Assembly (NCBI GenBank): GCA_017523995.1
Contig: JAFWUX010000139.1
Location: 1 to 41,816, forward strand
Direction of reading: 5' to 3'
From: Oscillospiraceae bacterium
Lineage (GTDB): Bacteria > Bacillota_A > Clostridia > Oscillospirales > Ruminococcaceae
DNA: 41,816 bases
Part shown: piece after piece, positions 1 through 33,000 of the stretch
Numbering within the stretch: the stretch's first letter is position 1
How the letters are laid out: each line of letters starts with the position of its first letter
Notes under the pieces: generated by a model
Databases searched by the model: none
What the model was told of the DNA's origin: nothing
Seen by the model: only the letters and a program-made list of their open reading frames with translations
Program-made: the position numbers and the translations under genes

Positions 1-156
1 AGCGGGCAGTGCCCGCTTCCATTTTGCTAAAGGTCTGTTTTGTGTCTGCTGGTTCCATTGTGTGTTCATGAATCAATCAGCGGGCAGTGCCCGCTTCCAT
101 TTTGCTAAAGGTCTGTTTTGTGTCTGCTGGTTTCATCTTGTGTTCATGAATCAATC
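1..156. repeat. Two tandem copies of a 78-bp repeat with a hairpin
   Basis: Positions 1-78 and 79-156 are nearly identical, differing at a few bases near the middle of the unit. Each begins with the perfect hairpin AGCGGGC-AGT-GCCCGCT followed by TTCCATTTTGC. A third, partial and rearranged copy of the start (GGCAGTGCCCGC, then TTGCATTTTGC) is seen at about 179-204 and supplies the -35 region of the next promoter. The array may continue to the left of the window. The GGGC-3nt-GCCC hairpin followed by a CATTTT tail resembles part of the dispersed elements described further on. No gene is visible here. Confidence 0.85.
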
Positions 157-3770: not shown

Positions 3771-3849
3771 AAAAATGGGATTCTTAAGGGCTAGTAGCCC
3801 TTAAGCGGGGTATGGGGCAGCGCCCCATTTCAAATCATCGCGAAGCGAT
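3771..3849 (-). repeat. Dispersed multi-hairpin element, short form, copy 1
   Basis: Read on the minus strand: ATCGC-TTC-GCGAT (3849-3837), a short spacer, ATGGGGC-GCT-GCCCCAT (3828-3812), the linker ACCCCGC, a 23-bp palindrome with arms CTTAAGGGCTA (3805-3783), then GAATCCCATTTTT. The same order of parts recurs at 15.66 kb and 32.78 kb and, with an extra module, at 10.9 and 15.8 kb. It lies between two convergent operons, immediately beyond the stop of the ABC ATPase, so it may end up in the 3' part of that mRNA. Confidence 0.75.
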
Positions 3850-10888: not shown

Positions 10889-11050
10889 TAAAAGTTTCGC
10901 TCAAGCCTTTTCAAAGGCTTGCGGGTCGAGGGCAGCGCCCTCGTCGCGCATCGCAATGCGCGAAACTCCCCTTTGCATATGAAGAGCTCGGGGGCTTGGG
11001 CACCTGCGATAGAGGTGCCCATTCTGAAATAGCATCCGCGAAGCGGATTC
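10889..11050 (-). repeat. Dispersed multi-hairpin element, long form, copy 1
   Basis: No credible gene lies here; the sequence is a chain of hairpins. Plus-strand positions: AAGCCTTT-TC-AAAGGCTT (10903-10920), linker GCGGGT, CGAGGGC-AGC-GCCCTCG (10927-10943), GCGCAT-CGCA-ATGCGC (10946-10961), GGGCACCT/AGGTGCCC (10998-11005 and 11013-11020), ATCCGC-GAA-GCGGAT (11034-11048). A second copy at 15.8 kb has the same hairpins with compensated base changes. The minus-strand reading has the same order as the short form: GAA/TTC hairpin, GC-rich hairpin, ACCCGC, second hairpin, ACTTTT tail. It is downstream of tRNA-Thr and its relics. Confidence 0.8.
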
Positions 11051-11084
11051 TTCTTTCATATTTGTAACAGCCTGTCTCAGCTAT

Positions 11085-11362
11085 TCCGACCACCGGCAGT
11101 GCCGGAGCCGTGTGCTCTATCAACGATTTTCACATAAAAAGAAAATCTCCGCCAAAAGACGGAGATTCACAAGCTGGTGGTCGGACTCGAACCGACGCCG
11201 GCAGTACCGGAGCCGTGCGCTCTATCAACTGCAAATAGAAAACCCGTCCTGAATAAACAGAACGGGTTTAAGCTGGTGGTCGGACTCGAACCGACGCCGG
11301 CAGTGCCGGAGCCGTGTGCTCTGTCAACTGCAAATAGAAAACCCGCCTCACATGAGACGGGT
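11085..11362 (-). pseudogene. Tandem array of degenerate tRNA copies, each with a terminator
   Basis: Three degenerate tRNA-like units lie downstream of tRNA-Thr. Unit 1 starts at 11171 and unit 2 at 11270 (repeat length 95-99 bp); a shorter remnant is at about 11085-11127. Units 1 and 2 keep the tRNA-Thr acceptor 3' strand and T-arm (identical through GGTTCGAGTCCGACCACC) and part of the D-loop, but have lost the acceptor 5' strand. Where the anticodon arm should be there is a short palindrome, CCGGC-AGT-GCCGG, with one change in unit 1. Each is followed on the minus strand by a different rho-independent hairpin (near 11145-11172, 11240-11269 and 11341-11362), the last being the terminator of tRNA-Thr itself. 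They cannot fold as normal tRNAs. Confidence 0.75.
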
Positions 11363-11365
11363 CTA

Positions 11366-11438
11366 AGCTGGTGGTCGGACTCGAACCGACGACCTGCGCA
11401 TTACGAATGCGCTGCTCTACCAACTGAGCCACACCAGC
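11366..11438 (-). tRNA. tRNA-Thr (anticodon CGT)
   Basis: On the minus strand it begins GCTGGTG and ends with the matching CACCAGC. D-arm GCTCAGTTGGTAGAGC, anticodon arm GCGCA-TTCGTAA-TGCGC with anticodon CGT, and T-arm GTCGG-TTCGAGT-CCGAC are all intact. CCA is not encoded. A terminator hairpin follows immediately (11362-11341). The promoter lies at 11585-11613, so the transcript would first pass through a degenerate tRNA-like sequence. Confidence 0.95.
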
Positions 11439-11454
11439 ACACTATCAATTTTTT

Positions 11455-11543
11455 CAAGGCACTCGAACCGGCGACCTGCGCATTATGAATGCGCCTTGGT
11501 TTCGCTTGCGAAACCATTGTCTACACAACTGAGCCACACCAGC
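11455..11543 (-). pseudogene. tRNA relic carrying an inserted palindrome
   Basis: On the minus strand this starts like tRNA-Thr (GCTGGTGTGGCTCAGTTG). It then has an insertion with the perfect 20-nt palindrome at 11497-11516 (arms TGGTTTCGC and GCGAAACCA), then an intact anticodon-arm sequence GCGCA-TTCATAA-TGCGC whose anticodon would read CAT. The T-arm begins GCCGGTTCGAG but the 3' acceptor strand no longer matches (GCCTTG). It lies between the promoter and tRNA-Thr. A working tRNA is unlikely unless the insertion is removed. Confidence 0.75.
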
Positions 11544-11584
11544 ATATACAAGAACCACACCGGCGACTGAACCAATGCCTAGTT

Positions 11585-11613
11585 ATTATAGCATATTTTC
11601 ATAAAAAAGTCAA
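11585..11613 (-). promoter_or_regulatory. Promoter of the tRNA-Thr region
   Basis: On the minus strand, TTGACT (11613-11608), 17-bp spacer, TATAAT (11590-11585) preceded by TATGC. It faces the interrupted tRNA copy and then tRNA-Thr. Confidence 0.85.
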
Positions 11614-11661
11614 GTGGGAGAATAGAAAAAAATTTTTTGCGTAAAAAAGACAGAAAAAGAA

Positions 11662-11690
11662 TTGTAATTTTCAGGAAAGTGTGCTATACT
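11662..11690 (+). promoter_or_regulatory. Promoter of the signal-peptidase-like gene
   Basis: TTGTAA (11662-11667), 17-bp spacer, TATACT (11685-11690) preceded by TGTGC. It diverges from the tRNA-Thr promoter, with the two -35 boxes 48 bp apart. Confidence 0.8.
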
Positions 11691-11787
11691 AGAATAGAAC
11701 TCGCACACCCCACTGTTCTGATTTCAGGGGATTCCTGTTTGATCTATACAGAAAGGAGCGCAGTCTCACCCGACTGCTACAGAAATT

Positions 11788-13203
11788 ATGGCGAAAAACA
11801 ATAAACGTAAAAAACATGTCTCGTGCCTTGGCGCACTGCTGATCTTCTGCATGCTGCTGATCGTTGCATTGACCGCAGCCGTCAACCTGCTGTTCCGCAA
11901 CGGCGCCGCTCCGAGCCTGCTCGGCAAGCGATATGTCTACTATACCGGCGACGATATGCCGAACCGTGTTCCGCAGGGTTCGCTCGTCTTTGCCGAGGAT
12001 ACCGATAAAATCAATCAGAAGGATATCGTCCTTTACCGCGATGCACAGGATGCCTACCGCATCGCCGTTGCAAGCCTGATCGTCGATACCGATTCCAATG
12101 TCCCGGATCAGACCGGCAAGACCTACTACCTCACCACCGAGAGCAACACCACCGCCGTTCAGGTCGAGGAGACATCGCTCGTCGGTATCTGCAAGCGCAG
12201 AAGCAAAGAGCTCGGCGCACTGATCGGATTCCTGACAAGCCTCGCAGGCAAGATCATCGGTCTGGCACTGCCGCTCGTGATCCTGCTGGTTTACTTCGTG
12301 TTCTCCTTCTCCGGCAAAAAGGATAACGATATGCTCCCCGATGACGAGGACAACGATCTCGCATTCGTCAAGTCGATCCAGCAGAAGCAGCAGAAGATCG
12401 CTGAACGTGATGCAGAGCGCATCGCAAAGGAGCGCAAAAAGACACAGACCTTCGATGATGCCCTCTATGAGGATCCGGATGCACCGTCCTTCAAGCCGCA
12501 GCACCGCCTCACCGATGAGGAGGTCGCGCAGATGGAGGAGGAGGAAGCTGCACGCCGCGCTGAGCGCATCGCAGCTGTCCGCAGCCATATGGAGCAGCGC
12601 CGCTCAACCGAAACCCCTGACGGCGTTCCGCTCTATACCACCGAGATCATCACAAAGACACACACGCTTTCGATTCCGAAGACCACGGATAAGCCGCTGA
12701 CCACCACGCAGCAGCGTCCGCTGAAGCCGACACCGACTGAGGACATCCCGCGCCTAACCGCAACCGGTCACATCCAGATCCCGACAGCAGAACAGCTCGC
12801 CGAGGAACAGGAGAGCCGTCTGAAGCAGGCACAGGCACTCGCAAGAGCCGCGCAGGATGAAGCATTTACCATGCCGTACAGACCGCGCCGCGAGCAGGAA
12901 ACCGCAGAACCGGAGATCAGAGGCAGCAGATTTGCTGATCCGGAACCCATGAAGCCGGCACCTGTTCAGGCAGAACCCGCTCCGGCACCCGCACCTGCTC
13001 CGGAAGTCACCGCTGCACCGGTCGCTCCGGCAGAAGCACCTGCAGCACCGGATGCGCCTGTCACACCGGCAGCAGCTCCGGCTGAACCGGAAAAGAAGGT
13101 CGTCAAGAAGGTTGTCAAGAAAGTCGTCAAGAAGCAGCAGATCAATGCATCCAATTTCGATGACCTCATGGCATTCCTTGATAACGAGCAGAAGAAACTG
13201 TGA
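11788..13203 (+). CDS. Membrane protein with an S26 signal-peptidase-like domain lacking catalytic residues
   Basis: A 471-residue protein. A basic N-terminus is followed by a membrane helix (about 13-36), an extracytoplasmic domain (about 45-145), a second helix (about 154-176) and a long charged cytoplasmic tail. The outer domain resembles signal peptidase I (TGDDMPNRVPQGSLVFAE, then INQKDIVLYRD and YRIAVASLIV), but the catalytic Ser position reads Asp in TGDDMP and the Lys position appears to be Arg in YRIAV. The tail has coiled-coil-like Glu/Arg/Gln stretches (residues 200-275), an Ala/Pro-rich segment (about 390-435) and KKVVKKVVKKVVKK near 436-449. The GAAAGGAG at about 11751-11758 is roughly 30 nt before ATG 11788, too far for a normal ribosome site. 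It is probably a scaffold or adaptor; no function is assigned. Confidence 0.75.
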   Translation: MAKNNKRKKHVSCLGALLIFCMLLIVALTAAVNLLFRNGAAPSLLGKRYVYYTGDDMPNRVPQGSLVFAEDTDKINQKDIVLYRDAQDAYRIAVASLIVDTDSNVPDQTGKTYYLTTESNTTAVQVEETSLVGICKRRSKELGALIGFLTSLAGKIIGLALPLVILLVYFVFSFSGKKDNDMLPDDEDNDLAFVKSIQQKQQKIAERDAERIAKERKKTQTFDDALYEDPDAPSFKPQHRLTDEEVAQMEEEEAARRAERIAAVRSHMEQRRSTETPDGVPLYTTEIITKTHTLSIPKTTDKPLTTTQQRPLKPTPTEDIPRLTATGHIQIPTAEQLAEEQESRLKQAQALARAAQDEAFTMPYRPRREQETAEPEIRGSRFADPEPMKPAPVQAEPAPAPAPAPEVTAAPVAPAEAPAAPDAPVTPAAAPAEPEKKVVKKVVKKVVKKQQINASNFDDLMAFLDNEQKKL

Positions 13204-13238
13204 TTCTGCCCATACTATTATAAAAGTGTAATCAGAAC

Positions 13239-13275
13239 AAAGCCGCGGAACCCGATTCCGCGGCTTTGATTTTTG
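13239..13275 (+). terminator. Intrinsic terminator
   Basis: AAAGCCGCGGAA pairs with TTCCGCGGCTTT around a CCCGA loop, followed by GATTTTTG. It ends the preceding gene. Confidence 0.9.
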
Positions 13276-13353
13276 CAATTCAATCCAAAAGTTTCTGAAA
13301 ATATCCATAATATTTTATATTAAATAAACTATACGTATAATGACCGGAAAACC

Positions 13354-13382
13354 TTGATTTTTTAGGTGAAATGTGCTATAAT
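13354..13382 (+). promoter_or_regulatory. Promoter of the methionyl-tRNA-synthetase-like gene
   Basis: TTGATT (13354-13359), 17-bp spacer, TATAAT (13377-13382) preceded by TGTGC. The start codon is 40 bp downstream. Confidence 0.88.
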
Positions 13383-13421
13383 ATAGTGAATTCTTATACC
13401 GTGACAGAAAGGAATCAGATT

Positions 13422-15446
13422 ATGTCGAGGAATCATGATACAAATAGTAAAAAACCGTTTGAGATCCCGCGTCCGGAATTTCCGAAGCGCGCGGTTGTCA
13501 CAGGCGGTATGCCATACGGTAACAAGGAGCTGCACTTCGGCCATGTCGGCGGCATGCTCGTCTTTGCGGATACCTATGCACGTTTCCTGCGGGACAGAAT
13601 CGGCAAAGAGAATGTGATCTTTGTCAGCGGCACCGACTGCTACGGCTCCCCGATCGCGGAGGGCTGGCGCAAAAAGGTCGAAGCAGGCGAATTTGAAGGC
13701 TCGCTTGAGGATTTCGTCCGGCGCAACCACAACAAGCAGAAGGACACGCTGAAAGCCTACGGCATCTCGCCCAACCTGTTCGGCGCATCCGGCCTCGGCA
13801 GAACCAAAGAAATCCACGCGGAATTCACGCTGGAATTCCTGCAGTCTCTTTACGATAAGGGGCAGCTCAACCAGATCACAACCATGCAGTTCTTTGATGA
13901 GAAGGCAGGCGTCTTCCTCAACGGACGGCAGGTCATCGGCAAATGCCCCGTCGAGGGATGCACCTCTGAGAAAGGCTATGCGGATGAATGCGATCTCGGG
14001 CATCAGTATATGCCGGAGAACCTGTTGAATCCGGTCTCGGCACTGACCGGCGAGACCCCGACCATGAAGCCCGTCACAAACTGGTATTTCAAGCTGCGCG
14101 ACTACGAAAAGCTGATGCAAGAATGGGTCGGCGAAATGCAGAAGGACAAGAGAATCCGTCCGGTTGTGTGGAAAACGATCTCCGAGTTTCTGAAGCCGCC
14201 GGTGATCTATATCAAGCGCGAATTTGAGGAGAAGTATCTGACGCTCAAAAATCAGATGCCTGCACATAACTATCTGGAGGAGCCGAAAAAGCCCTCGTTT
14301 ACAATCGAATTTGAAAAGCTGCCGGATTGCGACGAAGCCTGCCGCATCCTGACAGAAAACGGCATCCGCTACCGCACTGGCAAGACGCTTGTGCCGTTCC
14401 GCCTGACCGGAAACATCGAATGGGGCGTGCCTGCACCGGTTCTGGAGGGCGCCGAAGGTCTGACCGTCTGGGTCTGGCCGGAATCGCTCTGGGCGCCGAT
14501 CTCGTTCACGCAGGCATATCTTGAATCCGAGGGACATGACAGAGCCGAGTGGAAGAATTACTGGTGCTCGAAGGACGCGACAGTCTATCAGTTCATCGGG
14601 CAGGATAACATCTATTTCTACGGCATTGCAGAACCTGCCATGTGGATGGCACAGCAGCAGGCAGATGAAAAGGTATCAAATCCGCCGGAAGGCGAGCTGC
14701 AGATGCCGGTCATCGTGGCGAACCACCACATTCTTTTCCTTGATAAGAAGGCATCGAGCTCCGGCGCAGTCAAGCCGCCGATGGCTGACGATCTGCTGAA
14801 TCACTACACACCGGAACAGCTCCGCATGCACTGGCTCGGTCTCGGACTCGGTCAGCGCTCGGTCAGCTTTATGCCGAAGCCCTACAATCCGGATGCCGAT
14901 CCGAACGAACAGGATCCGGTCATCAAGGACGGACTGCTGCTCTCGAATGTCTATAACCGCATCATCCGCACGGCGTTCTACACCGCACAGAAGATCACGG
15001 ACGGCATTCTGCCGGATGTCGCACCGGAGGAGAATATCCTCGCAGATGCGAAAAAGGCAGTGCTTGAATATGAACGGCATATGTCGAAGTTTGCGTTCCA
15101 CCAGTGCACTTATGTGCTGGACGGCTACATCCGCAATGCGAGCAAGTATATGTCCAAGGCACTGAAGCCCGATGAACAGAGCAAAGAGGAGACCGTGCAG
15201 GTGCTCGCAAATCTGTTCTATATGATCCGCATTGCAGGCGTGCTGCTGCACCCGATGGCACCCTTCGGCACAGAAAAGCTGCGTGAATATCTGCAGGTGG
15301 ATGAGCGCATCTGGTCATGGGATACAATCTTTGAGCCGGTCAGCTTCTTCACCGGCGCAGACCACAAGCTGAAATTCCTGCCGCCGCGCACAGACTTCTT
15401 TACGCGCCACGAATCGCAGTTTGCCGAGGCAGCGGACGAGGCATGA
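13422..15446 (+). CDS. Class I aminoacyl-tRNA synthetase, methionyl-type
   Basis: A 674-residue class I synthetase closest to methionyl-tRNA synthetase. GGMPYGNKELHFGHVGGM near residues 28-45 is the HIGH region, followed by FVSGTDCYGSP. A zinc-knuckle-like segment (GKCPVEGCTSEKGYADECDLG) lies near 172-192. NIEWGVPAP and VWVWPESLWAP, then QFIGQDNIYFYG, match the MetRS core. The KMSKS position appears as LDKKASSSG, losing the usual Lys-Met-Ser-Lys. There is no C-terminal tRNA-binding (EMAP-like) domain. It may be the housekeeping MetRS or a divergent second copy; the rest of the genome would tell. ATG 13422 follows GAAAGGAA. The next small gene overlaps its stop by 4 bp. Confidence 0.85.
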   Translation: MSRNHDTNSKKPFEIPRPEFPKRAVVTGGMPYGNKELHFGHVGGMLVFADTYARFLRDRIGKENVIFVSGTDCYGSPIAEGWRKKVEAGEFEGSLEDFVRRNHNKQKDTLKAYGISPNLFGASGLGRTKEIHAEFTLEFLQSLYDKGQLNQITTMQFFDEKAGVFLNGRQVIGKCPVEGCTSEKGYADECDLGHQYMPENLLNPVSALTGETPTMKPVTNWYFKLRDYEKLMQEWVGEMQKDKRIRPVVWKTISEFLKPPVIYIKREFEEKYLTLKNQMPAHNYLEEPKKPSFTIEFEKLPDCDEACRILTENGIRYRTGKTLVPFRLTGNIEWGVPAPVLEGAEGLTVWVWPESLWAPISFTQAYLESEGHDRAEWKNYWCSKDATVYQFIGQDNIYFYGIAEPAMWMAQQQADEKVSNPPEGELQMPVIVANHHILFLDKKASSSGAVKPPMADDLLNHYTPEQLRMHWLGLGLGQRSVSFMPKPYNPDADPNEQDPVIKDGLLLSNVYNRIIRTAFYTAQKITDGILPDVAPEENILADAKKAVLEYERHMSKFAFHQCTYVLDGYIRNASKYMSKALKPDEQSKEETVQVLANLFYMIRIAGVLLHPMAPFGTEKLREYLQVDERIWSWDTIFEPVSFFTGADHKLKFLPPRTDFFTRHESQFAEAADEA

Positions 15447-15634
15447 CAGTTGTCTGGCAGAGCCTTGTCAAGCTCGGAGTGACGATCTATCTGCTCTTTG
15501 GATGCTACACGCTCTTTGTCGGATTTCTGGAAAAAAACCGCAAGAAAAAAATCGTCGGCGCGCTCGTGCTGATCGTGCCGACGGTTGCGATAATCGTGAT
15601 TTTGAAACTGCTTGCGAATAAATACGGGGCATAA
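15443..15634 (+). CDS. Small two-helix membrane protein
   Basis: A 63-residue protein. Two hydrophobic segments (about residues 6-27 and 37-58) are separated by a basic turn, EKNRKKK, which should face the cytoplasm. Its ATG overlaps the synthetase stop (ATGA), so it is probably translated by coupling. I do not recognise a family. Hydrophobic pattern and operon overlap support a real gene, with function unknown. Confidence 0.65.
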   Translation: MTVVWQSLVKLGVTIYLLFGCYTLFVGFLEKNRKKKIVGALVLIVPTVAIIVILKLLANKYGA

Positions 15635-15658
15635 TTCGGTATCTCCGATGGATTGATA

Positions 15659-15719
15659 ATGGGGGCGCTGCCCCCATACCCCCGCTTAAGGGATACGATC
15701 CCTTAAGAATCCCATTTTG
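15659..15719 (+). repeat. Dispersed multi-hairpin element, short form, copy 2
   Basis: ATGGGGGC-GCT-GCCCCCAT (15659-15677), linker ACCCCCGC overlapping the stem, CTTAAGGGAT-ACG-ATCCCTTAAG (15685-15707), then GAATCCCATTTTG. Parts and order match copies 1 and 3, with different but still paired stems. The leading GAA/TTC hairpin is degenerate here. It follows the small membrane protein gene by 24 bp. Confidence 0.75.
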
Positions 15720-15811
15720 TTGAAAACTCCGCAGGCGAATATTTCAAAAATGAAAAGGGGATGTCACTTTTTAGGCGGTTGGCAAATTATAGTTTGAATG
15801 TCGCCCATATC

Positions 15812-15966
15812 AAAAGTTTCGCTCAAGCCTTTTCAAAGGCTTGCGGGTCGAGGGCAGAGCCCTCGTCGCTCGTCGCAACGAGCGAAACTCCCCCGGCGTT
15901 CAAGCGTTCGCGGGCTTGGGTGCCTGCAAGTGAGGCACCCATTCATAATAGCATCGCGAAGCGATA
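15812..15966 (-). repeat. Dispersed multi-hairpin element, long form, copy 2
   Basis: Hairpins on the plus strand: AAGCCTTT-TC-AAAGGCTT (15825-15842), CGAGGGC-AGA-GCCCTCG (15849-15865), GCTCGT-CGCA-ACGAGC (15868-15883), GGGTGCCT/AGGCACCC (15918-15925 and 15933-15940), ATCGC-GAA-GCGAT (15953-15965). Compared with the copy at 10.9 kb, three stems differ on both sides in a way that preserves pairing. No gene is present. It lies downstream of tRNA-Arg and its relic. Confidence 0.8.
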
Positions 15967-16021
15967 CCTTATTCATTTTAACCACCTTTTTCTAAGTGAA
16001 TCCACCTGAAACTTTATTAGC

Positions 16022-16112
16022 ACAATTAAAAATATCCATACCAACCGGTACAGGGATTCTGGTACGCCCGGTGCGATTCGAGCGGAGAGCCTCCGCAGGC
16101 GAATCGACGCTA
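16022..16112 (-). pseudogene. Degenerate tRNA-Arg copy with a nested palindrome
   Basis: Positions 16063-16080 repeat the 3' end of the neighbouring tRNA-Arg (acceptor 3' strand and part of the T-arm), and 16106-16117 resemble its D-arm side (GACGCTATATCC). Between them, in place of the anticodon arm, is a nested palindrome: CGATTCG (16074-16080) pairs with CGAATCG (16100-16106) and encloses GCGGAG-AGC-CTCCGC (16082-16096). The acceptor 5' strand is lost. A partly decayed copy of the tRNA-Arg terminator (about 16029-16059) follows on the minus strand. Confidence 0.75.
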
Positions 16113-32776: not shown

Positions 32777-32779
32777 GCA

Positions 32780-32861
32780 GAATCGCCTTCGGCGATGATA
32801 TTGATATTGGGCTCCGCCCAAACCCGCCAAAGGGATGTAATCCCTTTGGAATCCCGTTTTT
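32780..32861 (+). repeat. Dispersed multi-hairpin element, short form, copy 3
   Basis: ATCGCC-TTC-GGCGAT (32782-32796), TTGGGC-TCC-GCCCAA (32807-32821), linker ACCCGC, CCAAAGGGAT-GTA-ATCCCTTTGG (32827-32849, sharing one base with the linker), then AATCCCGTTTTT. Same order as copy 1 with compensated stem changes. It starts a few bases past the SDR stop and may terminate or stabilise that mRNA. Confidence 0.78.
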
Positions 32862-33000
32862 GGATGATATGAAAAGCTTTTTGAGACTTTCTGCACTGCT
32901 GTAAGCAGTATCGTAATGAAAACATAATACAGATTCCGGCGCATGCGGGCTCGAAGGTGCTGAGTGAAATGATACACTTGAAAAAAGAAGGAGAATCATC

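What the first reader, a model, noticed from the sequence alone, without database searches (positions are those of the whole stretch)
10889..15966. Two long multi-hairpin elements with compensatory changes
The elements at 10889-11050 and 15812-15966 keep the same chain of hairpins, but several stems differ on both sides so that pairing is preserved: GCGCAT/ATGCGC versus GCTCGT/ACGAGC; GGGCACCT/AGGTGCCC versus GGGTGCCT/AGGCACCC; ATCCGC/GCGGAT versus ATCGC/GCGAT. Loops (CGCA, GAA) and linkers stay the same. That is what a maintained RNA or single-strand DNA structure looks like, not a decayed gene. Both copies sit beyond tRNA genes in the same orientation.
Basis: partly seen in the sequence, partly recalled or inferred. 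Interest (0 to 1): 0.85.

Follow-up and report, generated by a model that had tools for sequence, protein, structure and literature searches.

The report
Mobile hairpin-chain repeat in Ruminococcus
The two look-alike chains of hairpins are copies of a high-copy, gene-less mobile repeat of Ruminococcus-type bacteria; their paired base changes are real, but they sit in a jumping repeat rather than in a single RNA gene.

Summary
Both elements are real and their paired changes exceed chance. They are copies of one dispersed intergenic repeat: a chain of five hairpins, about 165 nt, matched in 27 of 30 genomes of the nearest genus searched and, more diverged, in 54 of 197 of its family. No Rfam family reaches threshold. 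In a tree-based test 11 of 12,403 column pairs are significant; 7 are stem pairs. The chain lies inside at least two different transposon-like frames: A (GGGTATGTAAC...TTATTAGCCC, 8-bp target duplication) and B (GGGAGTGG...CCACTCCC, 8-9 bp). Window copy 2 is a frame-A insertion between metG and tRNA-Arg; two close relatives lack it there. Copy 1 has frame-B-like flanks. Between near-identical copies H3 mostly differs by 2-3 base pairs at once, which suggests hairpin exchange or template switching. Whether RNA or DNA pairing is selected is unsettled. The tRNA neighbours look coincidental. It works like streptococcal BOX elements and MITEs; no autonomous partner was found. New variant of a known kind.

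The parts
15757..16023 (+). Frame-A element (MITE-like) that carries copy 2; imperfect terminal repeats GGGGATGTCACTTTTTAGG ... CTTTATTAGCAC
   Evidence: same ends in other genomes; site empty in L332 and L333
15749..15756 (+). left target-site duplication AATGAAAA
   Evidence: 7 of 8 match to the right copy
16024..16031 (+). right target-site duplication AATTAAAA
15811..15970 (+). copy 2 of the hairpin chain
   Evidence: 169.1 bits
15824..15843 (+). copy 2 H1
15848..15865 (+). copy 2 H2, loop AGA
15866..15885 (+). copy 2 H3, arms vary, loop CGCA nearly fixed
15916..15941 (+). copy 2 H4
15953..15965 (+). copy 2 H5, loop GAA, T-rich tail follows
10889..11053 (+). copy 1 of the hairpin chain
   Evidence: 177.6 bits
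10902..10921 (+). copy 1 H1
10926..10943 (+). copy 1 H2, loop AGC
10944..10963 (+). copy 1 H3
10996..11021 (+). copy 1 H4
11034..11048 (+). copy 1 H5, loop GAA
10839..10888 (+). left flank of copy 1, frame-B-like (ATTTCGCATCCGGCGATGTCAATA, shared in full or nearly with L122 and L118)
   Evidence: assigned by eye, the script left copy 1 unassigned; no clear target duplication
11057..11087 (+). right flank of copy 1, frame-B-like
   Evidence: assigned by eye

Best explanation
The two elements are copies of a dispersed, gene-less, composite mobile repeat. Shown: a chain of five hairpins of about 165 nt is the inner module; it lies inside different outer frames with their own ends and target duplications (A: 8 bp, B: 8-9 bp); copy 2 is a frame-A insertion absent from two relatives. 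Inferred: the frames are moved in trans by transposases that recognise their ends, and the chain rides along as structured cargo. Inferred: stems turn over by exchange of whole hairpins between copies and/or by replication template switching, which restores perfect pairing in one event, while loops and some linkers are constrained. Inferred and weakest: the chain makes insertions tolerable in intergenic DNA, partly because H5 with its T-rich tail may end transcription.
For: Copies in 5 of 5 and 27 of 30 genomes, often at contig ends. Frame A: 12 rows, 5.83 of 8 duplication bases match versus 3.66 permuted, no permutation of 2000 as high, 7 and 9 bases not significant; frame B: 13 rows, 4.62 of 9 versus 2.46 and 3.92 of 8 versus 2.06, none of 2000 as high in either; doubtful rows were left in (A: L101, L033 second copy; B: L057, L092). 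Empty site in G023 and G001, whose MetRS is 98% identical. Frame-A left ends not cut by a contig end lead into the chain, whole or truncated (all such rows; 24 loci of 108 pattern matches). Covariation. Of 16 pairs of copies with at most 5 differences outside H3, 10 differ in H3, 9 of them by 2-3 of 5 base pairs; the pairs share copies, so they are not independent. Orientation unbiased. No Rfam family at threshold.
Against: No autonomous element with the same ends was found, so movement in trans is inferred. 57 of 102 copies could not be put in a frame by my patterns, copy 1 among them. Copy 1 shows no clear duplication. Loops keep their polarity and parts of the chain are conserved across the family, more than idle cargo needs. 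The T-rich tail has only about 5 T in 9 nt, so the terminator idea is weak.
Confidence: 0.8

Rival explanations
1. A functional structured RNA (trans-acting or cis-regulatory) present in many copies and kept by selection on RNA pairing.
For: Significant covariation; conserved loops of fixed polarity; family-wide kin; a weak G-U over A-C excess, 10 to 3, in unique hairpins.
Against: G-U is 10 of 1235 pairs against 18 of 333 in tRNAs of the same loci; in the 102-copy count G-U and A-C were equal (25 and 24; 10 and 9 without H2). No fixed orientation to neighbouring frames. Empty site in close relatives. No Rfam family at threshold.
Confidence: 0.1
2. A DNA-level structure (cruciform or single-strand hairpins) recognised by a host or transposition protein, so that pairing in DNA is what is selected.
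For: Near-pure Watson-Crick stems. The H5 loop is GNA in 95 of 98 copies, the loop type of unusually stable DNA mini-hairpins (PMC4686876, passages). Different frames share the chain, as expected if it helps them.
Against: No Y1 (RAYT-type) transposase in the 6 window-genus genomes searched, so no known hairpin-recognising enzyme. Short fixed target duplications suggest cutting of double-stranded ends (inference). No binding protein was identified.
Confidence: 0.25
3. Neutral palindromes: template switching or gene conversion alone keeps the arms complementary, with no selection for the hairpins.
For: Multi-pair jumps in H3 between near-identical copies, and the same H3 arm types in several genomes; template switching is reported to create and correct stems (PMC8794818, abstract and passages).
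Against: Loop sequences are conserved, with fixed polarity; an inverted H3 loop, a predicted trace of template switching, was found in 0 of 102 copies.
Confidence: 0.3
4. Element associated with tRNA genes (integration or processing).
For: Both window copies lie 185-313 bp beyond a tRNA.
Against: Only 2 further hits of 233 (duplicates included) lie within 1 kb of a tRNA; most fetched loci reach only 1-5 kb around a copy, ample for that distance.
Confidence: 0.02

Closest known systems
BOX elements of Streptococcus pneumoniae and S. suis (PMC3049150; passages and section 7 seen)
   Same: Modular, foldable intergenic repeat of high copy number; in S. suis two families with different ends (A/C and E/F) surround the same kind of inner boxB modules, as here several frames surround the same chain.
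   Different: Sequence kinship was not tested. Here the inner module is a chain of distinct hairpins rather than tandem boxB units, with allele-like replacement of arms.
[quoted passage not shown]
   Same: Short, gene-less, terminal inverted repeats, short target duplications, intergenic, foldable.
   Different: A GC-rich hairpin chain shared between frames with different ends; autonomous partner not found.
REP/REPIN/BIME repeats with RAYT transposases (PMC2817692, PMC3733652, PMC3116915; search listing only)
   Same: Palindromic intergenic repeats in high copy, composite arrangement.
   Different: Chain of non-identical hairpins; no Y1 transposase in the six window-genus genomes searched.
SPRITE, terminator-like repeat of pneumococcus (PMC3049150, passages seen)
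   Same: Hairpin followed by a T-rich tract.
   Different: Here the terminator-like hairpin is one of five, and no bias in orientation to neighbouring frames was seen.

Membership tests
MITE | short element without transposase gene | tested here: met
   267 bp for copy 2; a mechanical 82-aa frame (15761-16009) crosses it
MITE | terminal inverted repeats | tested here: met
   imperfect: GGGTATGTAA against TTATTAGCCC in frame A; window copy 2 is degenerate
MITE | target-site duplication of fixed length | tested here: met
   8 bp frame A, 8-9 bp frame B, permutation test; not established for copy 1
MITE | multi-copy with empty sites | tested here: met
   empty site shown for window copy 2 only
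MITE | autonomous relative with the same ends | tested here: inconclusive
   none found for frame A, but many ends are cut by contig breaks and 24 loci of 108 matches were read; not searched for frame B
BOX element | inner modules within alternative ends | tested here: met
   compared with PMC3049150 section 7
BOX element | sequence homology to boxA, boxB or boxC | not tested
   no BOX sequence was compared; the claim is 'works like', not 'is'
REP with RAYT | cognate Y1 transposase in the genome | tested here: not met
   0 of 6 window-genus genomes match; 2 of all 12 genomes searched pass the cut-off, both from the wider family
structured ncRNA | covariation above a phylogenetic null | tested here: met
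   7 stem pairs of 11 significant pairs; home-made version of the R-scape idea
structured ncRNA | membership of a described Rfam family | tested here: not met
structured ncRNA | G-U wobble tolerated as in RNA stems | tested here: inconclusive
   10 G-U and 3 A-C of 1235 against 18 and 0 of 333 in 16 tRNAs
structured ncRNA | transcription | not testable with these tools
   no RNA-seq

The most novel reading that the evidence does not exclude
A hairpin-chain module with kin across a bacterial family is shared as cargo by several unrelated transposon frames because the folded DNA (or RNA) itself does something, for example aids transposition, replication or silencing, and it evolves by swapping whole hairpin alleles between copies.
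Probability: 0.2. Interest if true: 0.7.

Novelty: new variant of a known kind. Interest (0 to 1): 0.45.

Why it matters
Compensatory changes are usually read as proof of a functional RNA. Here they occur in a mobile repeat whose H3 arms mostly change by multi-pair jumps, so the family is a natural test of how far template switching and gene conversion can imitate RNA selection. It also documents one structured module shared by different transposon frames, and explains contig breaks in assemblies of these bacteria.

Tried and rejected
tRNA association: disfavoured. Gene-linked leader or terminator with fixed orientation: no support in orientation counts, though reading frames were chosen by length alone, and 25 of 118 chains overlap a mechanical frame of at least 120 aa. 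RAYT-type mobilisation: no Y1 transposase in 6 window-genus genomes. Known RNA family: none at threshold; the two sub-threshold matches are far below their cut-offs. The first G-U count suggested no wobble preference; a wider one gave 29 to 8, but its overlapping pattern counted copies up to three times; collapsed to unique hairpins it is 10 to 3, p=0.09, so I call it unsettled. Copy 1 orthologous site: G023 has tRNA-Thr-like repeats and another gene there and no match to the chain, but the region differs too much for a clean empty site. Frames C and E: the permutation script matched only 1 and 5 copies and gave no significant duplication, so they are reported only as observations. Genome and frame labels on the chain tree need 46 and 32 changes; no shuffled control was read out, so this is not used. 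H2 loop TCC is a register slip. Literature searches listed no paper that I recognised as describing this repeat; the library holds open-licence papers only and I saw listings, not the papers, except PMC8794818, PMC10969869, PMC3049150 and PMC4686876 (passages; one whole section of PMC3049150).
Full report
What was checked. Each is a chain: H1 (CAAGCCTTT..AAAGGCTTG), H2 (CGAGGGC..GCCCTCG), H3 (variable arms, loop CGCA), H4 (GGG.....CCC) and H5 (GC-rich stem, GNA loop), followed by a T-rich tail. Both fold well beyond shuffled sequence. The window carries GroEL-, MetRS- and SpoIIP-type genes, so I take it as chromosomal DNA of a spore-former-type Clostridia bacterium (inference); no genome is held for it.

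It is a high-copy repeat. A 39-base exact core hits 58 stretches of genome contigs; most record titles are Ruminococcus (R. flavefaciens included), the rest Oscillospiraceae, a Clostridiales bacterium and Anaerotruncus sp. MC2020. Many hits lie at contig ends. Five of five genomes searched have 13 to 42 matches (40 candidates scored per genome), and 27 of 30 genomes of the genus of G002 match. With a covariance model, 54 of 197 genomes of the family match; only 14 candidates per genome were scored and the filters were strict, so this may be low, while some weak matches may be chance. Of 24 loci from that search (L211-L234), 21 show the H1-H2-H3 order, mostly with another 3' half; at three (L224, L225, L232) my pattern landed on sequence without it.

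Covariation. From 206 profile hits in 181 loci, some of which overlap the same place, I kept 117 near-full hits and 102 distinct chains. H3 pair 4 is TA 40, CG 27, GC 22, AT 6 and 3 others; pair 6 is TA 56, GC 32, AT 5, CG 5 with no exception (98 of 102 scored). A test with substitutions re-dealt on the tree (54 sequences chosen under 93% identity out of 77 canonical ones) gave 11 of 12,403 significant pairs: 7 stem pairs (H1 two, H3 three, H4 two) and 4 others (columns 10-19, 10-31, 107-131, 107-133). Pair counts agree on cells paired and two-sided changes, less on the number of pairs and pair types. H2 is misaligned by length variants and H5 hardly varies, so neither is tested. The tree null assumes one tree, which exchange between copies would break.

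RNA or DNA. If the + strand RNA were selected, G-U should be tolerated and A-C not. In 102 chains the two were equal (25 and 24; 10 and 9 without H2). Over unique hairpins of the wider set it is 10 to 3 of 1235 (p=0.09; the raw overlapping count was 29 to 8). In 16 tRNAs of the same loci it is 18 to 0 of 333 (ARAGORN's own rules favour G-U, as I recall). So wobble is rarer than in tRNA, with a weak lean toward G-U. The H5 loop is GNA in 95 of 98 copies; GNA loops on G-C stems form unusually stable DNA mini-hairpins (PMC4686876, passages). The question stays open.

How stems change. Of 16 pairs of copies with at most 5 differences outside H3, 10 differ in H3, 9 of those 10 by 2 or 3 of the 5 variable pairs; the pairs share copies, and a few of the differences involve an imperfect stem (L090), so these are not 9 independent events. 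The same arm types recur in different genomes. Within genomes, H3 type is tied weakly to H1 (p=0.048) and H4 (p=0.016) and not to H2 (p=0.18); H1 is tied to H2 (p<0.001) and H2 to H4 (p=0.012), H1 to H4 not (p=0.10): partial, not free, shuffling. I infer replacement of whole hairpins, by conversion from other copies or by template switching, a process reported to create and correct stems (PMC8794818, abstract and passages). No inverted H3 loop was found in 102 copies, which speaks against the simplest form of template switching.

Frames. Flanks show the chain inside several frames: by pattern 12 C, 8 A, 7 B, 6 F, 5 D, 4 E, 3 G, and 57 of 102 unassigned. Frame A has an 8-bp target duplication (12 rows, two with doubtful right ends; 5.83 of 8 versus 3.66; none of 2000 permutations; 7 and 9 bases not significant). 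Frame B gives a signal at 9 bases (4.62 versus 2.46) and at 8 (3.92 versus 2.06), none of 2000 in either, so its length is 8-9 (13 rows, L057 and L092 doubtful). In frame-C-like copies, direct repeats of about 24-38 bp that include a whole terminator-like hairpin flank the chain in seven loci (L148, L149, L153, L154, L156, L158, L171); this was not tested by permutation. Frame-A left ends not cut by a contig end lead into the chain, whole or truncated (24 loci of 108 matches read). Pattern matches number 69 in G004 and 18 in G008. No autonomous copy was seen.

Window copies. Copy 2 lies in a degenerate frame A, 15757-16023, with duplications AATGAAAA and AATTAAAA. G023 and G001, whose MetRS is 98% identical, lack it at the same place: in G023 the missing stretch also includes a tRNA-tail repeat, while G001 keeps that repeat without the element. 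Copy 1 has flanks like those of frame-B-like copies L118 and L122, without a clear duplication, and its region differs too much in G023 for a clean comparison.

Context. Of 103 chains with reading frames on both sides the orientation classes are 30, 27, 26 and 20 (frames chosen by length). Only 4 of 233 hits are within 1 kb of a tRNA. I take the tRNA placement as coincidence.

Comparison. It works like BOX elements, where in S. suis two kinds of ends surround the same inner modules (PMC3049150, section 7), and like MITEs (PMC10969869, passages). Homology to BOX was not tested. The searches named in Tried and rejected listed no description of this family.

Changes made on checking: frame-B duplication length widened to 8-9 bp, the autonomous-partner row set to inconclusive, and confidence lowered from 0.82 to 0.80 for these reasons.

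Noticed in passing
window 11085-11345: Partial tandem repeats (about 99-bp period) of the 3' half of tRNA-Thr and its terminator, downstream of the intact gene at 11366-11438.
   Followed up: partly
window 16040-16104: Partial repeat of the tRNA-Arg 3' end and trailer; a similar arrangement without the mobile element is in L333.
   Followed up: partly
window 15637-15718, inverted kin at 3772-3810, weak model match at 32777-32881: A second hairpin-rich intergenic repeat (GTATCTCCGATGGATTGATAATGGGGGCG...); in L115 two direct copies of such a repeat, 131 bp, flank the chain.
   Followed up: partly
L148, L149, L153, L154, L156, L158, L171: Chains flanked by direct repeats of about 24-38 bp that contain a whole terminator-like hairpin, most with ends like TCAGACTGTCGATAAAC; an unusually long target duplication if real.
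   Followed up: partly
window 1-156: 78-bp tandem duplication, two copies, 96% alike.
   Followed up: no
L001, 8200-8333: A frame-A end with the start of the chain at the end of a contig listed as viral; may be host DNA.
   Followed up: no
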